NCBI RefSeq assembly: GCF_020520425.1
Contig: NC_079487.1
Location: forward strand, 134,004,385 to 134,068,384
Length of the DNA stretch: 64,000 nucleotides
Direction of reading: 5' to 3'
Origin: Spinacia oleracea
Taxonomy: Eukaryota; Streptophyta; Magnoliopsida; Caryophyllales; Amaranthaceae
Shown: positions 13,268 to 59,345 of the stretch, piece by piece
Position numbering within the stretch: position 1 is the first letter of the stretch
How the letters are laid out: every line of letters begins with the position of its first letter
The notes under the pieces: model-generated
What the model was told of the DNA's origin: nothing
Seen by the model: only the letters and a program-made list of their open reading frames with translations
Database searches by the model: none
Translations under genes and position numbers: made by a program

Positions 13268-13351
13268 CCCATCTTCCTTCCTAAAACTCAACCGTCATTC
13301 AACACTTTCCATTTCAAAGTTCCCATTTCCAGAAAATAATCAAACATAACA

Positions 13352-14584
13352 ATGAAGCTCAAAACTCGCTTCTCTTTCTGCACCTCCGCCGTCGCCGGAG
13401 ACGATTCTAACCATCTTCCGCCGCCGACTACAACCTCCTCCCCCGCCTCTAACATCACCAGCAATGTCAGCTTACAAAGTCACCCTTCCCTTCAAACACT
13501 CCCATCTGTCCCTTCTCTTCAATACCTCTCTCTCTTTGACGTCACCGCCGCCGTGAACCTCACCCACTCTCTCTCCACTACTCTATCTTTACCTTCCTCG
13601 ATTTCCGCACTTTCTCTCTCCTCTTCTCTTCTCTATGTCTCCTCCGGCCATCAGATCAACGTCTACGACTCTTCCACTCTTACTCTCCTTGAAACGTTCA
13701 ATACTAACGGAGATTCAACCGGCGCTGTTAAATCCGTTGCTTTCTGTGACGGAAAAATCCTGTCAGCTCACCAGGATGGGAAAATCCGTGTCTGGAAGAT
13801 GACGGCGAGTAAACGGCATAAGCTGGTTTCGACTCTACCTACTTTAAAGGACCGGTTGAGCCGGTTTCCGGTTCCGAAGAATCACGTCAAAGTCCGGCGT
13901 CATAAGACGCGTCTCTGGGTGGAGCACGACGACGCCGTTTCAAGTTTAGCTGTTACGAACGGGAAAATCTACTCCGTTTCGTGGGACAAGACTTTGAAGG
14001 TGTGGGGCCCAAGGAGTTTACGGTGTTACGAGTCTGTAACGGCGCATGAGGACGCGGTTAACGCCGTTGCCGTTTCTGATGACGGAATGGTTTACACCGG
14101 ATCGGCTGACGGTCGGATTCGGGTTTGGGGGAAAACAACCGGGTCGGAGAAAAAGCTTACAGGAGTTGCCACGTTGGAGAAACACAAATCAGCGGTGAAT
14201 GCGTTGGCGTTGAATTCTGACGGTTCGATCTTGTTCTCAGGTGCTTGTGACCGTTCGATCTTGGTTTGGGAGAGAGAAGATAATGCGAAGTATATGGGGG
14301 TAAGTGGGGCCCTTAGAGGTCATGATGGGGCCATCTTGTGCTTGATCAACGTCTCTGATTTCTTAATCAGTGGTTCGGCTGATCGGACGGTCAGGATTTG
14401 GCGTAGAGGGGCTGAAGGAAAATTCTGTTGTTTGAGCGTTTTGACCGGACATACGAAGCCAGTCAAGTCTTTGGCTGCCAAAATGGAGGGTGAAGATGGA
14501 ATTTCGGTGTTTAGTGGTTCGCTTAATGGTGAAATTAAAGTTTGGAGTCTTAAGATTAATCACTCCTCTAATCAAAACTCGTGA
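13352..14584 (+). CDS. WD40 repeat protein, JINGUBANG-like
   Basis: The 410-aa intronless gene encodes a predicted seven-bladed beta-propeller. An N-terminal Ser/Thr/Pro-rich tail (about 1-85) is followed by WD units whose GKIRVWKM (144-151), DKTLKVWG (212-219), GRIRVWG, RSILVWE, RTVRIW and GEIKVWS strands are plain. The insert at 160-190 (TLPTLKDRLSRF and VKVRRHKTRLWVEH) is characteristic of the plant JINGUBANG family (Arabidopsis At2g26490 and relatives), where one member restrains pollen germination. The family is usually 400-470 aa and intronless, so this copy looks complete. Start: the first ATG after a TATA-like box, in AACAATGAAG context. A specific role cannot be assigned to this paralogue. 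Propellers of this sort are adaptors, so a binding partner rather than a catalytic activity is expected. Codon use is much more GC-rich than the flanks. Confidence 0.93.
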   Translation: MKLKTRFSFCTSAVAGDDSNHLPPPTTTSSPASNITSNVSLQSHPSLQTLPSVPSLQYLSLFDVTAAVNLTHSLSTTLSLPSSISALSLSSSLLYVSSGHQINVYDSSTLTLLETFNTNGDSTGAVKSVAFCDGKILSAHQDGKIRVWKMTASKRHKLVSTLPTLKDRLSRFPVPKNHVKVRRHKTRLWVEHDDAVSSLAVTNGKIYSVSWDKTLKVWGPRSLRCYESVTAHEDAVNAVAVSDDGMVYTGSADGRIRVWGKTTGSEKKLTGVATLEKHKSAVNALALNSDGSILFSGACDRSILVWEREDNAKYMGVSGALRGHDGAILCLINVSDFLISGSADRTVRIWRRGAEGKFCCLSVLTGHTKPVKSLAAKMEGEDGISVFSGSLNGEIKVWSLKINHSSNQNS

Positions 14585-22412: not shown

Positions 22413-22564
22413 TTCGAGAAATTAGCAATAGTACATTTTGAGTATTATTAGCCAAGTAATGAAAATTAATTTTTAAAAGTTACTACTCTTCGAGAAATTA
22501 GCAATAGTACATTTTGAGTATTATTAGCCAAGTAATGAAAATTAATTTTTAAAAGTTACTACTC
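22413..22564 (+). repeat. Two-copy 76-bp tandem duplication
   Basis: The unit starting TTCGAGAAATTAGCAATAG is present twice in direct succession (22413-22488 and 22489-22564), nearly identical over its whole length. The near identity points to a recent local duplication. Confidence 0.85.
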
Positions 22565-26027: not shown

Positions 26028-26230
26028 TGTTTTATTAATCAACAACAAAAGAAAGTACGTACAACATACAATCATAATAGATCGATCCTTAGCAATCAAA
26101 CGAGCATCGACCCTCTCAACATAAACATAAACACAAACACAAACACAAACACAAACGCAAAGACAACCTAGCTAACTAGCTTAGGCGCGCGCACGGTGAT
26201 CGCTGAAACGGAACGGCGATACGAGCGAGC

Positions 26231-27973
26231 TTACGAACAAATGCCAACGGGAAAAGGCGGGATGCAAATAGTGCCGCCACAACAATCACCAACGAAAACA
26301 CCACATTGTCCTCCTCTCTTTACGCACTTAAGTGTCTCTTTTGCAAACCCAAATTCCTTGATAATGGCCTTTTCTTGATTAATGTTGTTATAATAAGCAT
26401 TAATAATTTGCTCCTTTACAACTTCTTGTATTATGGCTTGAGTAACATCATCATCTGTCTCACTATTGCCCAACGTAGGAGCTGCATGTACGTACGTATG
26501 CATGCATAATTAGTTTTATCCAACAATTTTATCAATAATATACGAGTTAATATAATGCAATATTCCAATAATGGAAAATGATAAAGGCCGGTCGCAATAA
26601 CATGCGACCTTTAAGCCGTGTCACAATGATGACATGGCATACATATGTGTCATGATTTAAATTGGAATCTAAAATATTTAACTTATACTTCCTCCGTTCC
26701 TAAATAGTTGCACCGTTTTGACTTTGGATACTATTCACTTGTCTTGCTTTGACCTCACTTTTCTACTAATAAATAAAATTAAAAATTATTAAACAAAGTA
26801 TTATTAGGTTTGTCTTAATATATATTTTAAATATATCAACTTTTTATAATTTTTACTAATACATACTTATAAGTATTGATGGTCAAAGTTATGCGTTGGC
26901 AAACGTGAAAGTCAAAACGGTGCAACTATTTAGGAACGGAGGAAGTATATCCTATTATACATGTTTAAAATAAAGTTAGGAAAGTCTTAATATTCTAATT
27001 TGTTTCTTTTTTTATATCGATTACCTTATTTACATATTTTCATAGTAAACATTTTGCATTGATAGTAAAAATATTATGATGACTCATAGCCTACGTGGCG
27101 CCTATATGTACCAATTAAACTCCGACACGTAAGATTGCGACAACTAAATGTTGTCGCAACTTGCGACCTTTATCATCACCCTCCAATAATTTGCAACAAT
27201 TTTATCAATAATAGGCATGCAATATTCCAATATTAATTAATTCCAAATTATCAATTATCATTTTTGTTAAAATGATTTTAAAATATCAAGTGTTTTTCTA
27301 GTCTTCTAGAGGAATTGAATTTACTACAAATCAGCAGTATACATAATACTTACTATACCCCTATGCAAAACACTTTATATTATAATAACACGTACTAGCT
27401 CTGTTTCAAAACGATCTTTACAGTTACTATTTGCACGGATCCCAATGTAATATTAACTACTAATATATCCAATTTCGTATGTGAAAAAATTATAAAAATT
27501 TGATATTATGAAAATAAATCCCGAGACTAATCTAACAAGATCTTACATGTAACGTTTTGATGTATATAATGGTGAGAAGTTACGGTCAAAGTTTTTATAC
27601 TTTTGACACATTTTCCAAAGCGTAAACAACTTAATTTCTGAAACGGAGGTAGTACTAAAGAATGCAAAATTGCGGAACATATCTTTTTTAACATATTAAT
27701 TAGTTTTTATTTTCACCTTATAAATGGATTGTTACTTTGGTTTTTGAATTGTGTATGACTTATACTACTTATTTCTTTTTGTGCAATACAATTACATAAT
27801 ATTTTTCAACCACCATTTTATAATTCTTGTATTCGCTCCGTACTAGGAGTGATAAGAGTGATAAGATATTGAACGGCCTAAATAATCTAAGAAAGACGAT
27901 TACTTGAAATAGTCAGCAACAGAAATGCTAAGAGAGCCAACTTAGAACAAGATGAATGCTTCTCCATGCTCAT
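26231..27973 (-). CDS. Secreted cystine-knot (knottin-type) peptide precursor
   Basis: Two exons join exactly. Exon 1 (27973 down to 27904) encodes a signal peptide (MSMEKHSSCSKLALLAFLLL and onward); exon 2 (26481 down to 26231) encodes the rest. The donor GTAATC and acceptor TGCAG split one Thr codon, giving 106 aa. After the signal (about 1-28) comes an acidic pro-region (29-72), then a C-terminal core with cysteines at 76, 83, 90, 91, 96 and 105, spacing C-x6-C-x6-CC-x4-C-x8-C. That is an inhibitor cystine knot. Related Caryophyllales peptides (Mj-AMP of Mirabilis, PAFP-S of Phytolacca) have slightly different spacing and act against fungi, so an extracellular defence role is inferred, not proven. 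A TATA box lies about 95 bp upstream of the ATG and AATAAA about 195 bp past the stop. The intron holds a Mutator-like MITE with a Stowaway inside, and a second Stowaway. Confidence 0.82.
26573..27181. mobile_element. Mutator-like MITE in the knottin intron
   Basis: A perfect 9-bp duplication TCCAATAAT flanks the element (26564-26572, 27182-27190). The ends (GGAAAATGATAAAGG and CCTTTATCATCACCC) and the interior match 8057-8368. A Stowaway MITE (26688-26945) splits it. The 9-bp duplication identifies the family as Mutator-like. Confidence 0.85.
26688..26945. mobile_element. Stowaway MITE nested in a Mutator-like MITE
   Basis: The ends CTTCCTCCGTTCCTAAATAG and the exact reverse complement near 26926-26945 are bounded by TA (26686-26687, 26946-26947). 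The long perfect terminal repeats suggest a young insertion. Confidence 0.87.
27395..27652. mobile_element. Stowaway-like MITE in the knottin intron
   Basis: Ends CTAGCTCTGTTTC and GAAACGGAGGTAG with TA on both sides (27393-27394, 27653-27654). The interior is a close match to 5111-5365. Confidence 0.75.
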
Positions 27974-28062
27974 TTTTTTTTTTGCACTGTACTTAATTAT
28001 TCAGAAAATTTTAAGTTTTTTCTAGTAAAATATGGATGAAAACCTTGACTGTGAATGTCTTC

Positions 28063-28070
28063 TATTTATA
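28063..28070 (-). promoter_or_regulatory. Probable TATA box of the knottin gene
   Basis: On the minus strand TATAAATA lies about 90-97 bp upstream of the ATG at 27973. It supports the assignment of the signal-peptide exon as the true first exon. Confidence 0.6.
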
Positions 28071-29391: not shown

Positions 29392-29812
29392 GGTGAACCT
29401 TCTCACATTTTCGACTTACATATAAAGAGAAAATACCGTAAGGACCACCAATGATCATAAAAATACGCATGGGTGTACGGTACATTCGGATACACCTAAT
29501 AATTTTCACAATTTACTGATTCACGTGAATCACATTGCCTGTTTGTACTGTTTTACGTGATTAATTTGATAACAACTTGGCAAAATAAATAGATTTCAAA
29601 AAAGGGTCCTATATGTCTATAACTACACAACCCTAACTACTCCGTACTTATTAACGTAGGCCCTTCTTAAATACGGAGTAAATATGAAGACACATTGAAA
29701 AGAAAAAAACACAAAGAGGGAAATTGTAAAAAAATGGGGGAAATATAATGCTTACCTCTTTAGTCGGATAAACAACAGCAACAAAAGAGAGGCAATAGTA
29801 GAAAAACATAAG
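29392..29812. other. Intergenic DNA before the tRNA gene
   Basis: No gene is supported. Two TACGGAGTA-type words lie at 29638 and 29672. Confidence 0.5.
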
Positions 29813-29894
29813 CGTCAACAGCAGGGTTCGAACCTGCGCGGGCAAAGCCCAACAGATTTCAAGTCTGTCTCCTTAACCACTCGGACATATTGAC
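29813..29894 (-). tRNA. tRNA-Ser (UGA)
   Basis: The minus strand reads GTCAATATGTCCGAGTGG at the 5' end, has the long variable arm expected of tRNA-Ser (GGGCTTTGCCC), and the T arm CAGGTTCGAACCCTG. The anticodon loop ACTTGAAAT carries TGA, decoding UCA. The acceptor stem GTCAATA/TGTTGAC pairs in all seven positions with one G-U. The 82-nt gene has no intron and no encoded CCA, as expected for a nuclear gene. The stem pairing suggests it is functional. Confidence 0.95.
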
Positions 29895-38603: not shown

Positions 38604-38679
38604 CTTTGTGATACTTGAAGGAAGATATATCAAAACCAACTTAGATCAATCTTTTTCCTACTTGTAAACTTACAATTCA

Positions 38680-41446
<2,767 letters not shown>

Positions 41447-54950: not shown

Positions 54951-57900
54951 TTAATCACCTGTGCTACACCCCATGCTACTGTTATTACTACAACCGTCAT
55001 CATCATCAGCTATGATAAGACATCCGCCGCCGTTGGATGACGAGCTTCTGCTACTGTTTGTACTGCTTTCATTATCATCATCATTACTCTCTATGAGAGT
55101 AGATGAGGTTAGGTTGATATGATGGTGATGATCATACAATTCATCATTGTGTGGTAGTGTTGTTGTGGAAGTTGATGTGGTGGTTGGGGAGGTGGCGGTG
55201 GTGGTGGTGGTGGTGGTGGAGAAGACGATGGGGAGCGGGGCTGTTGAGGTTTGTCCGTCTCGGGGCGGGGAGAAAACCACGGGAAGATACTCGTCGTTCT
55301 CGCACGCGAATTTTGAGTTCTTGAAATGCTCCTTCAATGCTTCCAAACCCTTTTTTTTTATTTTTTCACATTTTCAAAAAAAATTGTTAGTGTAATTCAA
55401 AAATTAATTAATTAATTATAATTAAATTAATTTAATTACGAGAAGTACTATATTTCACTGTCTTCAAAAAGACAGTGGAAAAAGATGTTTTTCTGCTGGC
55501 TTTTATTTTTCTCTTTTTAGTTTTTGTTTTTTCCTTTTTTATTTATGTGGAAAATTTTCACGAAACACTAGGGAAGTTGAGGTGTTGGAAAGAGTAGTAA
55601 ATTGTGAATACCAAAGAGAAATTAAACCAATAAATAGTTTTAAATGAACAAACAAGTACAATAAAAGAATTCAAGCAAAATAATATCACTATTTGTACTT
55701 GCAAACAGCATTAAGCATGCAGCATTTAGCAACATTTGCTACCTAATCTTTCATATCCCATTCCCCTATTAAGCAAAAAATTAGCTAGCAATATGATACT
55801 CCCTTCGTTTCAAAACAAGGCACTCGTATTTTCGAGGACACTTAATCTCTATTATAGAGGTGAAGAGGTGAGGTTGTTTTAGTAAATCCGCTTTTGGTGT
55901 CCCTATTAGATTACTAAAATACCCCCAACACTTATAGAATAGAAAATACGAAGTATAATAACAACTTACCCATTAGGAAAACACCAAAGAAGCATTTTAA
56001 TCAATTTGGCCCCAAAAATAATTCTTACAATTTTAATTAATCTGTTTATATGTGTTCGTATCTATCTAACTTATATGTTTCTTATATTCGCATATATCGC
56101 ATTTATATTATATTTTTCACATGTTATTTCAGGTTGAAATGTAATAACACAAATATATTTCTTATATTCGCACGTATTGCGTGCATATAAGACTAGTTTC
56201 TCTTATAAGACAACATTCTTGTTGGTTAGAGAAATTATAGCCAATGTACAAGACTTTATTGGGCCTGATTATAACTTATTTGAACTTATTAAACCTAAAT
56301 TCTACAATTTTTAAGGTGTTCGTGTTTTCGAGTACCATGAATTTCTCTTACGATACAAAATTGTTATTGCTATAGATTATATGCTCGAATATCTCTCCCC
56401 CATTTGTAACTTGCATCATCTTTTGTGCCTCATTCGCACCCAAATTAAAACAGAAATGGTTTGATTTGAATTGAAAAGAAATTAACCATAAAATATACTC
56501 GTATATAAATAAATAAAAATTAAAAGCTAAGTTATTTTTTTTTTCTGCACCAATGGGGTAGTAGTCAAATATTGCAATTATGCAGCAATACGTGAGCCAA
56601 GATTTGTTTGAACCCACAAAAAAGCAAAAAGGAAGAGAGAATATAGGGAGAAATGATTTTGATACACTTTAGATTGATTTTAGCACACAACATAAAATTG
56701 TACTCTCATAACGTGTTAGACAAAGGACTATCGAAAATTCAATTTTTTTTGGTGCGCCAAAATTATTTCCCTTACCTTTCATTCCGAATGTAGTTTCGAG
56801 TTAAGAAATTAGTACCTGAACTCTGGCATAAGTGACCTCACAAATCTTGCGAGAATTGAAAACTTCCCAATGTTGATGATGAAATGCTTTGTATAACCTC
56901 AATGTTGCTTCTGGGGAAGTCATGTTCACAAACCCATATCCCACATTGCATTTGTTGCTGCAATTTTTTCTATTTTATTTAAAATTTTGTATAAATAACA
57001 ATTAAATAAAATAAAATCAAATAAATAAAAACTGACAAAAGTTAATTAAATAAAATGGTGGGAAATAGCAGAAGAAATACTTGAAATCGATTGGGAGGTA
57101 GACGAAATCATAGGAAGACAATGGCTGATTATTATCTCCAGAAACTGCAATCTGTTCATTGCAGTGTATACAGTGATTGTCTAACATATTCAACACCAGC
57201 TTCTGACTGCCACCAAAATCAAATTTATTTATTTTAAAAAATGTTAATAATTATTGAATTTCATTAAAATTTGATTTAATTATACCTATATTTGTTGGGT
57301 ATGTTCTTGATCATGATTGTGGTCCTAGTATCTTTACACCCACTTTCCTCAACGATTGCATCCTCCTTTATCAAAAACCTCGGATCAAAGTTCTTTGATC
57401 TCCCTTTCCACGGCTTCGTCTTCACAACCGCCGTGGACGGTGGTTGTTGTTGTGGCTTGGCTCTTGAGCTTGAACTCGAACCCGAACTCGAACAATTCTC
57501 ATTTCCATTCACATTATTGTTACTACCACCACCTTTTCTACTGCTACTACTACAACCATTATTTCCTCCTTTTTCAGTTGTTTGCAATGCTAACCCGCTC
57601 ATCGCCGTCTCGAGTGAGTCCTCACTACTCATCGGAGAGCTCCTACGCCGTCGGACATTCTGCTTAGGGGATATTCTCCGGTTGCGGAGAGGGAAAAGAG
57701 GTGGAGGAGGCGGTGGCTGTTGCGGTTGCGGTTGCGGTTGCGGTTGAGGAGGTTGAATTGGTTTCGCAATTTGATGATTAGGGTGGTGGTAATTAAGATT
57801 ATTAATGGTGTTAAATTGATGATGATGATGGTGGTGGTTATTGAATTTCTTGTTTGAATGTCCACCTGGTCTACTGAATTCAATCATGACACTACGACCG

Positions 57901-58954
57901 TTGATTTCCTTTCCATTCATCTGAGCCAACGCTCTAGATGCATCTCGAACGTCGTAGAACTCCACGAATCTCTGCTGCCTCTTCATTGGCGTCTCTCTTA
58001 ATTCCTTCACTGCCCCTACATTCATTCAAACATAAAAAATAAAAATAAATCCAAATTATAATTATGATTATGATTCATCCCTTGATATTTAACTTGTTCA
58101 TCTTCATGTCAAAATCACTGTAATTAATTAACGCTTGATTACGGATAATATAATTACCATTTTGAGCTCTTTATTTATGGCTAGGAAATATAATTTCCAT
58201 AAAAAAAAGGGGATGAAATTAAGGAAATACCAAAAGCTTGGAAGATGTCCTTGAGAGTGAGAGCAGAGACACTGGGGTTGAGATTGAAAATGACGAGAGT
58301 GCCCTGGTTTTGACCATCAGGGAAGGCGTTTGTAGCAGGGATGGTGAACTGGGCCCAGACAGCCCGGCCTGATATGAGTCCGGGTGAAGGAGGTGGTAGG
58401 GGCGGCGGTGGGCCATCGAAACCGAAAGTGGGACCACCGGTAAAAGTGTAGTTTGGCGCCAAAATAGAGTAATGGATGCGCAGACGATTCTGGTGTTGCA
58501 TGTGCTGCTCACGTACGGTATCGAGGGCTGCATGCGCAGCCCTCAGATCATAAAAATGGACGGTCACGATCCCTTCCGACACTCGCCCCATCTGAACGGC
58601 TCTCACGTCGCCGAATACCTCAAGCTCTCGTCGTACTATCGATTCACTGACGTCAGGTGGGACGGCGGTTAAGAGGATGGCTCTCGTCGGAGAAGACGCC
58701 GGCGGGGGGATTGACGGTGGGATAAACGCTGGAGACGGTGGTATAGTAGGAATCATGAAAGTCGGCGGCGGCGGTGGTGGTGGAAGGGGGGGATTTTGGT
58801 AGATTAGCTCAGGGAAGAACGGTGGATGTTGTGGCGGAGGAAGGGGAGAGATAAGAGAGAAGTGGTGGTGTTGGGGTATAAAAGTAGGACGGAACTCTTG
58901 CGCAAAGGGGTCTAGATGTTGGCCGGGGAAGCGTATAACGCCGTTTTCTGCCAT
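54951..58954 (-). CDS. TERMINAL EAR1-like Mei2-type RNA-binding protein
   Basis: Five exons read down the minus strand: 58954-58231, 58015-57286, 57206-57081, 56957-56816, 55349-54951. Phases close exactly, giving 706 aa. A Pro-rich N-terminus (35-88) precedes RRM1 (about 91-160) and RRM2 (about 218-292, [11 protein letters not shown] to [10 protein letters not shown], with RFVEFYD). A low-complexity His/Gln/Pro/Ser linker (295-450) follows. The C-terminal Mei2-type RRM (about 472-575) has [29 protein letters not shown] and [18 protein letters not shown], the signature of the TERMINAL EAR1 subfamily. The tail is Thr/Ser/Asp/Asn-rich. Maize TE1 and rice PLASTOCHRON2 control leaf initiation rate and shoot-apex patterning, and Arabidopsis TEL genes are expressed in the apex; a like role is inferred. 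It is slightly longer than those proteins because of linker repeats. Intron 4 (1,466 bp) ends in an unusual A-rich acceptor. Confidence 0.95.
56365..56455 (+). mobile_element. SINE 3' fragment in intron 4 of the TEL gene
   Basis: TTGTGCCTCATTCGCACCC resembles the SINE tail TTGTGGCTCATTTGCACC found at 9318-9425. The head is not recognisable. The frame 56348-56617 is not coding. Confidence 0.35.
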
Positions 58955-59345
58955 TTTTGGAGGTGATTGGGAGAGTTGTGTGGTTGGCGGAATTTATTAA
59001 GCAGGGGTTTAGGAAGGCGTTTACCGGCGAGGGTCGGACGGGGTTTAGGAAGCCATGTACGGTGAGAAGTAAGAAAGCGATTGGAAAGAGAGGAGAGAGA
59101 AAAATGGGGGTATTTTTTGGAATTGTTGTTTTTAGTGTTTTTACATCCCTTTTTGAAGTCCAAAACATTACCAAAAATGCAAAATCCTATCTAATCTTTC
59201 AAGTAACTTTTGTGTGAGGTTGATTTACTGAAATATCCCCCTTGGTGTAGAGTAATGGGTTAATAGCCGTACACGTGGCGTTTGGACGAATGTTGGTCCT
59301 TTTGTTTTCTTTGTTCAAAGGGTGATTCTGATGTTAAAGTGTTAA

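What the first reader, a model, noticed from the sequence alone, without database searches (positions are those of the whole stretch)
26231..27973. Two-exon gene for a cystine-knot peptide with unusual Cys spacing
Exon phases, a signal-peptide exon, a TATA box and six Cys in ICK order all agree, yet the two exons are 1.4 kb apart, so automatic annotation would likely miss the first exon. The spacing (x6, x6, CC, x4, x8) differs from Mj-AMP/PAFP-type knottins (x6, x8, CC, x3, x10), and the acidic pro-region is long. It may represent an undescribed peptide group of this plant lineage.
Basis: partly seen in the sequence, partly recalled or inferred. Interest (0 to 1): 0.75.

Follow-up and report, generated by a model that had tools for sequence, protein, structure and literature searches.

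The report
Spinach knottin gene, SOTI-like two-exon plan
This is a real but ordinary kind of gene: a spinach gene for a small secreted cystine-knot defence-type peptide, one of a diverse set of spinach genes that includes the known spinach seed trypsin inhibitors.

Summary
On the minus strand, exon 1 (27973-27904) and exon 2 (26481-26231) join in phase 1 into a 106-aa precursor: signal peptide, mildly acidic pro-region, six-Cys core (x6, x6, CC, x4, x8). No RNA data were available, but paralogues support the splice: exon 1 plus promoter matched 4 places in the 894-Mb genome, and 4 of 4 lie upstream of an exon-2 copy, across introns of 254, 352, 1422 and 5153 bp. The window's intron carries a 266-bp inverted-repeat element, so its length means little. 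The genome encodes the published spinach trypsin inhibitor SOTI-III letter for letter, and SOTI genes have the same plan.

The spacing is not a group marker: every loop length varies within the window gene's own four-gene group, and one SOTI gene also departs from the usual pattern. The precursor does not match Pfam PF17983 (SOTI) or PF11410, and its last loop lacks the Arg that SOTI uses against trypsin. Best reading: a fast-evolving, secreted, defence-type knottin with unknown target. New member of a known kind; low to moderate interest.

The parts
28061..28070 (-). TATA box TATAAATAGA
   Evidence: the 10-mer is present in all four aligned genes of the group
27904..27973 (-). exon 1: signal peptide MSMEKHSSCSKLALLAFLLLTIS + 1 nt (the other three genes start at the equivalent of the second ATG, 27967)
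   Evidence: exon 1 plus promoter found at 4 places, 4 of 4 upstream of exon-2 copies
26482..27903 (-). intron, 1422 bp, GT-AG, phase 1, 72% AT
   Evidence: introns of the other three genes 5153, 254 and 352 bp
26684..26949 (.). MITE-like element in the intron with 42-nt perfect terminal inverted repeats (the name Stowaway-like is recalled, not tested)
26231..26481 (-). exon 2: pro-region, six-Cys core and TAA stop
26339..26481 (-). pro-region (48 aa with the junction Thr, net charge -4)
   Evidence: similar in C1b and C6a
26234..26338 (-). knottin core ETLKCVKRGGQCGVFVGDCCGGTICIPPFPVGICS; the exact mature N-terminus is inferred
   Evidence: model; fold search; sequence
26031..26036 (-). AATAAA, possible polyadenylation signal

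Best explanation
A spinach gene for a secreted inhibitor-cystine-knot (knottin) peptide, in a small divergent gene group built on the same plan as the spinach trypsin-inhibitor (SOTI) genes. Shown from sequence: two coding exons, a hydrophobic signal exon, a phase-1 intron, a pro-region and a C-terminal six-Cys core, which is doubled in one paralogue. Inferred: the precursor enters the secretory pathway, signal and pro-region are cut off, disulfides I-IV, II-V and III-VI form, and the stable core acts outside the cell or in vacuoles, most likely in defence against herbivores or microbes. It probably does not inhibit trypsin as SOTI does, because loop V-VI (CIPPFPVGIC) has no Arg or Lys where SOTI-III has Arg. 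The target is unknown. Between the two closest paralogues the core has changed much faster than signal and pro-region.
For: Exon-1/promoter DNA matched 4 places in the genome, 4 of 4 upstream of an exon-2 copy. Four gene models share the phase-1 splice with introns of 254-5153 bp. All six core Cys are kept in the window/C1b and window/C6a pairs although only 12 of 29 aligned core residues are identical (P about 0.002 each, optimistic because the aligner favours Cys). SOTI-III is encoded 100% in this genome, and six SOTI gene models have the same plan. Profile comparison of the four window-group precursors with eight SOTI and bidentatide-like precursors gives probability 97.6% over 87 columns; the core-only score is 21.9 against at most 14.8 in 100 shuffles with Cys fixed. 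Single-sequence model mean pLDDT 81.5; its best PDB matches are ICK asteropsins (TM 0.70 for asteropsin G). Non-synonymous change, core against signal plus pro, window/C1b: 27/68 against 16/172 sites, P 3e-7. SOTI inhibitory loop V-VI with Arg P1: PMC3795654, passages.
Against: No transcript or peptide evidence. Purifying selection on codons is not detectable in the three window-group pairs tested (one-sided P 0.61, 0.15, 0.59), while it is in the three SOTI pairs (P 0.0001, 0.01, 0.03). The window donor has A at -1, as C6b does, where C1b and C6a have G. The pro-region alone shows no detectable similarity to that of the SOTI set (probability 1.2%). The signal-exon part of the profile match could partly be generic hydrophobicity, and a phase-1 intron near a signal peptide is common in genes of secreted proteins (recalled). 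None of 44 Foldseek matches reached E 0.001; the best is 0.086. The five AlphaFold models ranged from 46.5 to 81.5 in mean pLDDT.
Confidence: 0.85

Rival explanations
1. The window copy is a silent or decaying member of the knottin family: open by letter but no longer expressed or well spliced.
For: Donor with A at -1, dN/dS 1.10 against C1b and 0.67 against C6a, no detectable codon constraint, an inserted element in the intron, and broken relatives elsewhere: C2:100.63 Mb with the core lost, C6:59.04 Mb with the pro-region frame broken and a pair at C6:147.81 Mb with damaged cores.
Against: All six Cys kept and the frame open from end to end against C1b and C6a; TATA box and start region conserved. 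In a neutral simulation only 19% (53 changes) and 9% (85 changes) of 5000 copies stayed free of stops, which is suggestive, not decisive.
Confidence: 0.2
2. Exon 2 is used with its own start (an in-frame ATG lies about 7 codons upstream of the acceptor) or with a different first exon, giving an unsecreted or differently targeted peptide.
For: The unspliced frame reads LCMHTYVHAAPTLG in the window, with an in-frame Met.
Against: Exon 1 is conserved upstream of exon 2 at 4 of 4 places. In C6b the unspliced frame has no ATG between the last stop and the acceptor; its first in-frame Met lies inside exon 2.
Confidence: 0.04
3. The similarity to SOTI is convergence: the group is an independent ICK lineage without a common ancestor with SOTI.
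For: Pro-regions are not similar; there is no PF17983 match; the best PDB matches by sequence and fold are sponge asteropsins, which shows how easily ICK cores look alike; the tree of 14 precursors has only 3 well-supported of 11 inner branches.
Against: Signal exon and core match in one co-linear profile alignment, same exon plan and phase, core score above 100 of 100 Cys-fixed shuffles.
Confidence: 0.25

Closest known systems
Spinach trypsin inhibitors SOTI I-III (Pfam PF17983 Tryp_inh; SOTI-III in PDB 4aor)
   Same: Same genome; same plan of signal exon, phase-1 intron, pro-region and C-terminal six-Cys core with vicinal CC; precursors of 101-112 aa in six models against 104-106.
   Different: x6, x8, CC, x3, x10 in five of six SOTI models and x6, x5, CC, x3, x10 in the sixth; Arg P1 in loop V-VI of SOTI-III (PMC3795654, passages) against no Arg/Lys in the window loop; no PF17983 match for the window precursor.
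PAFP-S / Mj-AMP antimicrobial knottins of Phytolacca and Mirabilis (PF11410; that this Pfam family covers them is recalled)
   Same: Caryophyllales (recalled for these genera), six Cys with CC, and a C-x-K-x-G-G-x-C start in PAFP-S (sequence from PMC7565491 Table 3).
   Different: x6, x8, CC, x3, x10 in PAFP-S; no PF11410 match of the window precursor. A genome search with PF11410 found nothing, but its controls also found nothing, so absence from spinach is not shown.
Amaranth alpha-amylase inhibitor AAI and the wrightides/alstotides
   Same: Six-Cys knottins of similar size; weak sequence matches (2mi9 E 0.095 and 2mau E 1; profile match 2mm6 E 0.09).
   Different: AAI spacing x6, x8, CC, x4, x7; amylase-binding residues not tested.
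Asteropsins (marine sponge)
   Same: Best solved-structure match by sequence (2n3p, E 0.0015) and by fold (TM 0.70).
   Different: Sponge peptides; taken here as fold resemblance, not kinship (inference).
Pea albumin 1 (PA1b) genes
   Same: In Medicago 50 of 53 genes have two exons and one intron, placed in the signal-peptide sequence and 87-1199 bp long (PMC4785745, passages).
   Different: Legume family; PA1b is followed by a PA1a part in the same precursor.
Bidentatide (Achyranthes bidentata)
   Same: 33-aa plant ICK peptide with Cys 1-17, 8-21 and 16-32 linked (PMC8348887, passages); Amaranthaceae by recall.
   Different: Close to another spinach gene (C2:73.30 Mb, 20 of 34 aligned positions identical), not shown to be close to the window gene.

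Membership tests
Inhibitor cystine knot / knottin | Six Cys in the order C-C-CC-C-C in a core of about 30-40 aa | tested here: met
   x6, x6, CC, x4, x8 in a 35-aa stretch
Inhibitor cystine knot / knottin | Knot topology I-IV, II-V, III-VI | tested here: inconclusive
   Single-sequence model mean pLDDT 81.5; best PDB matches are asteropsins with TM 0.57-0.70 but E 0.086 or worse; disulfides not mapped
Inhibitor cystine knot / knottin | Secreted precursor with signal peptide | tested here: met
   Hydrophobic exon 1, conserved in three further gene models; judged by hydropathy, no SignalP run
SOTI trypsin inhibitors (PF17983) | Match to PF17983 above its cut-off | tested here: not met
   Window precursor: no PF17983 match listed at E up to 10; SOTI-III precursor as control 1.4e-22; 7 places in the genome, none on C1
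SOTI trypsin inhibitors (PF17983) | Basic P1 residue in loop V-VI | tested here: not met
   Window loop IPPFPVGI has no Lys/Arg; SOTI-III loop VPHPILRIFV, P1 Arg
SOTI trypsin inhibitors (PF17983) | Gene plan: signal exon, phase-1 intron, pro-region, C-terminal core (plan found here, not taken from the literature) | tested here: met
   Six SOTI models compared with the window gene
SOTI trypsin inhibitors (PF17983) | Trypsin inhibition | not testable with these tools
   needs the folded peptide and an assay
Mj-AMP/PAFP-S (PF11410) | Match to PF11410 | tested here: not met
   No match listed at E up to 10
Mj-AMP/PAFP-S (PF11410) | Spacing x6, x8, CC, x3, x10 | tested here: not met
   x6, x6, CC, x4, x8
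Mj-AMP/PAFP-S (PF11410) | Antifungal activity | not testable with these tools
   needs the folded peptide and an assay

The most novel reading that the evidence does not exclude
Spinacia has an unnamed, fast-diversifying lineage of secreted knottins: the window gene, a two-knot paralogue 225 kb away, and two open genes on another chromosome. Conserved signal exons carry cores that change loop lengths and sequence quickly, in the manner of venom conotoxins, against changing herbivore or pathogen targets. The raised synonymous divergence of the core relative to the rest of the gene could mean that cores are exchanged as modules.
Probability: 0.25. Interest if true: 0.5.

Novelty: new member of a known kind. 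Interest (0 to 1): 0.3.

Why it matters
It places a spinach knottin gene and its paralogues beside the biochemically known SOTI inhibitors, and shows that Cys spacing varies so much among close paralogues that it should not be used alone to define peptide groups. The two-knot paralogue and the fast-changing cores make the group a small plant model of how knottin precursors diversify. The practical value is mainly annotation and candidate defence peptides of a crop.

Tried and rejected
Rejected: spacing as evidence of a new group (loops vary inside the group). Rejected: intron length as noteworthy (254-5153 bp in the group; inserted element in this one). Rejected: the conotoxin and other animal-toxin Pfam hits, which all lie below the curated cut-offs. 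Rejected: kinship with sponge asteropsins; taken as shared ICK fold.

Led nowhere: the PF11410 genome search found nothing, nor did its controls. My first translate call was one frame off. The first acceptor script used the wrong phase and was redone. A paper search for Mj-AMP + PAFP-S + intron gave 0 papers. The SOTI/MJTI string search gave 6 papers, 5 of them unrelated. The papers on PAFP-S cloning and on bevuTI-I are not held, so whether this group is already listed in the beetroot knottin-classification paper (J. Nat. Prod. 2020, 83, 3305; known to me here only from a reference list) could not be checked. Literature searches bearing on earlier description. I saw no mention of this group in the titles and abstract beginnings listed, or in the passages I read; listings were capped (for example 20 of 29) and no paper was read whole.

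Limits: RNA-seq, gene annotation and other Amaranthaceae genomes were not available. No SignalP and no PAML; dN/dS is a Nei-Gojobori count written in a script that used only the first knot of C1b and left out C6b. A further pair, the two bidentatide-like genes, was counted (dN/dS 0.60 overall, 1.57 in the core) but not put to the binomial test. Alignment A4 has whole precursors for 2 of 6 rows and exon-2 parts for 4. The tree used 14 precursors, not every locus found. Genome search counts are lower bounds by the tool's own statement.

Full report
What was checked. The window lies at C1:134004385-134068384 of an 894-Mb plant genome. The genome is taken to be Spinacia because the mature sequence of the published spinach trypsin inhibitor SOTI-III (P84781; letters from PMC7565491 Table 3, passage) is encoded 100% on C5. 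The species, rather than a close wild relative, is inferred.

The gene. On the minus strand, exon 1 is 27973-27904 and exon 2 is 26481-26231, joined in phase 1 (A|CT) with GT-AG borders, encoding 106 aa. TATAAATAGA lies at 28070-28061, an AATAAA begins at 26036, and the intron is 72% AT against 61% in both exons. The core is ETLKCVKRGGQCGVFVGDCCGGTICIPPFPVGICS, spacing x6, x6, CC, x4, x8.

Is the splice real? There is no RNA here, so I used paralogues. A DNA search with exon 1 plus promoter matched 4 places: the window, C1:134250246, C6:57478525 and C6:66017530. Each of the 4 lies upstream, on the same strand, of an exon-2 homologue. The introns are 1422, 5153, 254 and 352 bp, all phase 1 after a hydrophobic signal exon. 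The TATA 10-mer is identical in the four. The search gives lower bounds; a weaker exon-1 match at C6:59.04 Mb appeared only in a local comparison. This is strong comparative evidence for the first exon. The other three genes start at the equivalent of the window's second ATG, so the first ATG may not be used. The window donor has A at position -1, as does C6b, where C1b and C6a have G.

The relatives. The window group has four open genes: the window gene, C1b (134.25 Mb; 178 aa with two knot domains in one exon 2), C6a (57.48 Mb) and C6b (66.02 Mb). Broken relatives, described only, are C2:100.63 Mb (core lost), C6:59.04 Mb (pro-region frame broken) and a pair at C6:147.81 Mb (damaged cores). 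Other spinach six-Cys precursors found are seven PF17983 places on C5 and C6, two genes at C2:73.30 and C6:141.83 Mb that resemble bidentatide (the first compared), and a third group with places on C3, C4, C5 and C6. Six SOTI models show the window gene's plan, with introns of 233-654 bp and precursors of 101-112 aa.

Is it kin of SOTI? hhalign of the four window-group precursors against eight SOTI and bidentatide-like precursors gives probability 97.6% over 87 columns. Controls: cores alone score 21.9 against mean 9.5 and maximum 14.8 in 100 shuffles that keep Cys in place. Signal plus pro scores 38.6 against a maximum of 13.8 in 100 shuffles, but that shuffle also breaks up the hydrophobic block, so it is a soft control. 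The pro-regions alone show nothing (probability 1.2%). Against the third group the full-length score is 52.2 over 36 columns, and the core score of 24.1 only just exceeds its 100 shuffles (maximum 22.7). Common descent with SOTI is likely but not proven; in a tree of 14 precursors 3 of 11 inner branches are well supported and 6 are open. The window precursor has no listed match to PF17983 or PF11410 at E up to 10.

Structure. A single-sequence AlphaFold2 model of the core has mean pLDDT 81.5 and pTM 0.45; the five models ranged from 46.5 to 81.5. Foldseek's best matches are ICK asteropsins (asteropsin G TM 0.70, E 0.086); none of 44 matches reached E 0.001. This supports an ICK fold without proving it. 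By sequence the best PDB match is also asteropsin G (E 0.0015).

Constraint. Between window and C1b, non-synonymous change is concentrated in the core: 27 of 68 sites against 16 of 172 in signal plus pro (P 3e-7). Synonymous change is also higher in the core, 6 of 19 against 4-5 of 47 (P 0.03-0.06), so part of the difference may be history, such as gene conversion or core exchange, rather than selection. The six Cys are kept while only 12 of 29 aligned core residues are identical (P about 0.002), a figure that is optimistic because the aligner favours Cys. Against this, codon-level purifying selection is not detectable in three window-group pairs (P 0.61, 0.15, 0.59) but is in three SOTI pairs (P 0.0001, 0.01, 0.03). 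The group is evolving fast, by relaxation or diversification; these data do not say which. A neutral simulation leaves 19% of copies free of stops after 53 changes and 9% after 85, so the open frame alone is weak evidence of function.

Mechanism. Inferred from family knowledge: signal and pro-region are removed in the secretory pathway, the knot forms, and the stable peptide serves defence. SOTI-III inhibits trypsin through loop V-VI with an Arg at P1 (PMC3795654, passages); the window loop IPPFPVGI has no Arg or Lys, so a SOTI-type trypsin inhibitor is unlikely. Whether it inhibits another enzyme, acts on membranes or on insects is open.

Comparison. A two-exon gene with the intron in the signal-peptide sequence is the norm for the legume knottin gene family Albumin 1 (50 of 53 Medicago genes; PMC4785745, passages), a family that also shows signs of positive selection (same passages). 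Knottin precursors with several cores are known (TIPTOP1-3 with 5, 5 and 8; PMC11253845, table passage). So neither the exon plan nor the two-knot paralogue is a new kind. The spacing is not diagnostic: within this group every loop varies.

Verdict. The interpretation as a special group defined by spacing is only partly supported. It is a new member of a known kind.

Noticed in passing
L007:5502-6050 (C1 about 134255501-134256049): Paralogue 225 kb away encodes two different knottin cores in one exon, spacings x6,x5,CC,x4,x8 and x6,x6,CC,x3,x12, with a repeated INQENAI stretch between them.
   Followed up: partly
L031 (C2:73297448) and L032 (C6:141829266): Two spinach genes encode peptides like bidentatide of Achyranthes; for the first, 20 of 34 aligned positions are identical.
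   Followed up: partly
L012-L015 (C6 7.67-7.94 Mb), L037, L039, L040 (C4), L038 (C3), L044 (C5): A third spinach six-Cys precursor group with Glu-rich pro-regions; four near-identical copies within about 0.26 Mb on C6.
   Followed up: partly
L041 and L046 (C1 124.74-124.75 Mb): Short ORFs of 45-48 aa with six or seven Cys, two in each locus; possible further knottin-like exons.
   Followed up: no
window 26684-26949: 266-bp element with 42-nt perfect inverted ends inside the intron; 16- and 20-nt exact direct repeats 662 and 673 bp apart lie around it, as if nested in a larger insertion.
   Followed up: partly
window 26231-27973 against L007 first core: Synonymous divergence is higher in the core than in signal plus pro (6/19 against 4-5/47, P 0.03-0.06), hinting at gene conversion or core exchange.
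   Followed up: partly
window 13340-14584 +: Single open frame of 414 aa with WD40 repeats.
   Followed up: no
window 38668-39132 +: Open frame with an I29 propeptide and the start of a papain-type cysteine protease.
   Followed up: no
window 57276-58993 -: Two open frames with RRM matches; Mei2/TEL-like by recall.
   Followed up: no
window 29812-29894 -: tRNA-Ser (TGA) predicted by ARAGORN.
   Followed up: no
window 22413-22564: Perfect 76-bp tandem duplication.
   Followed up: no
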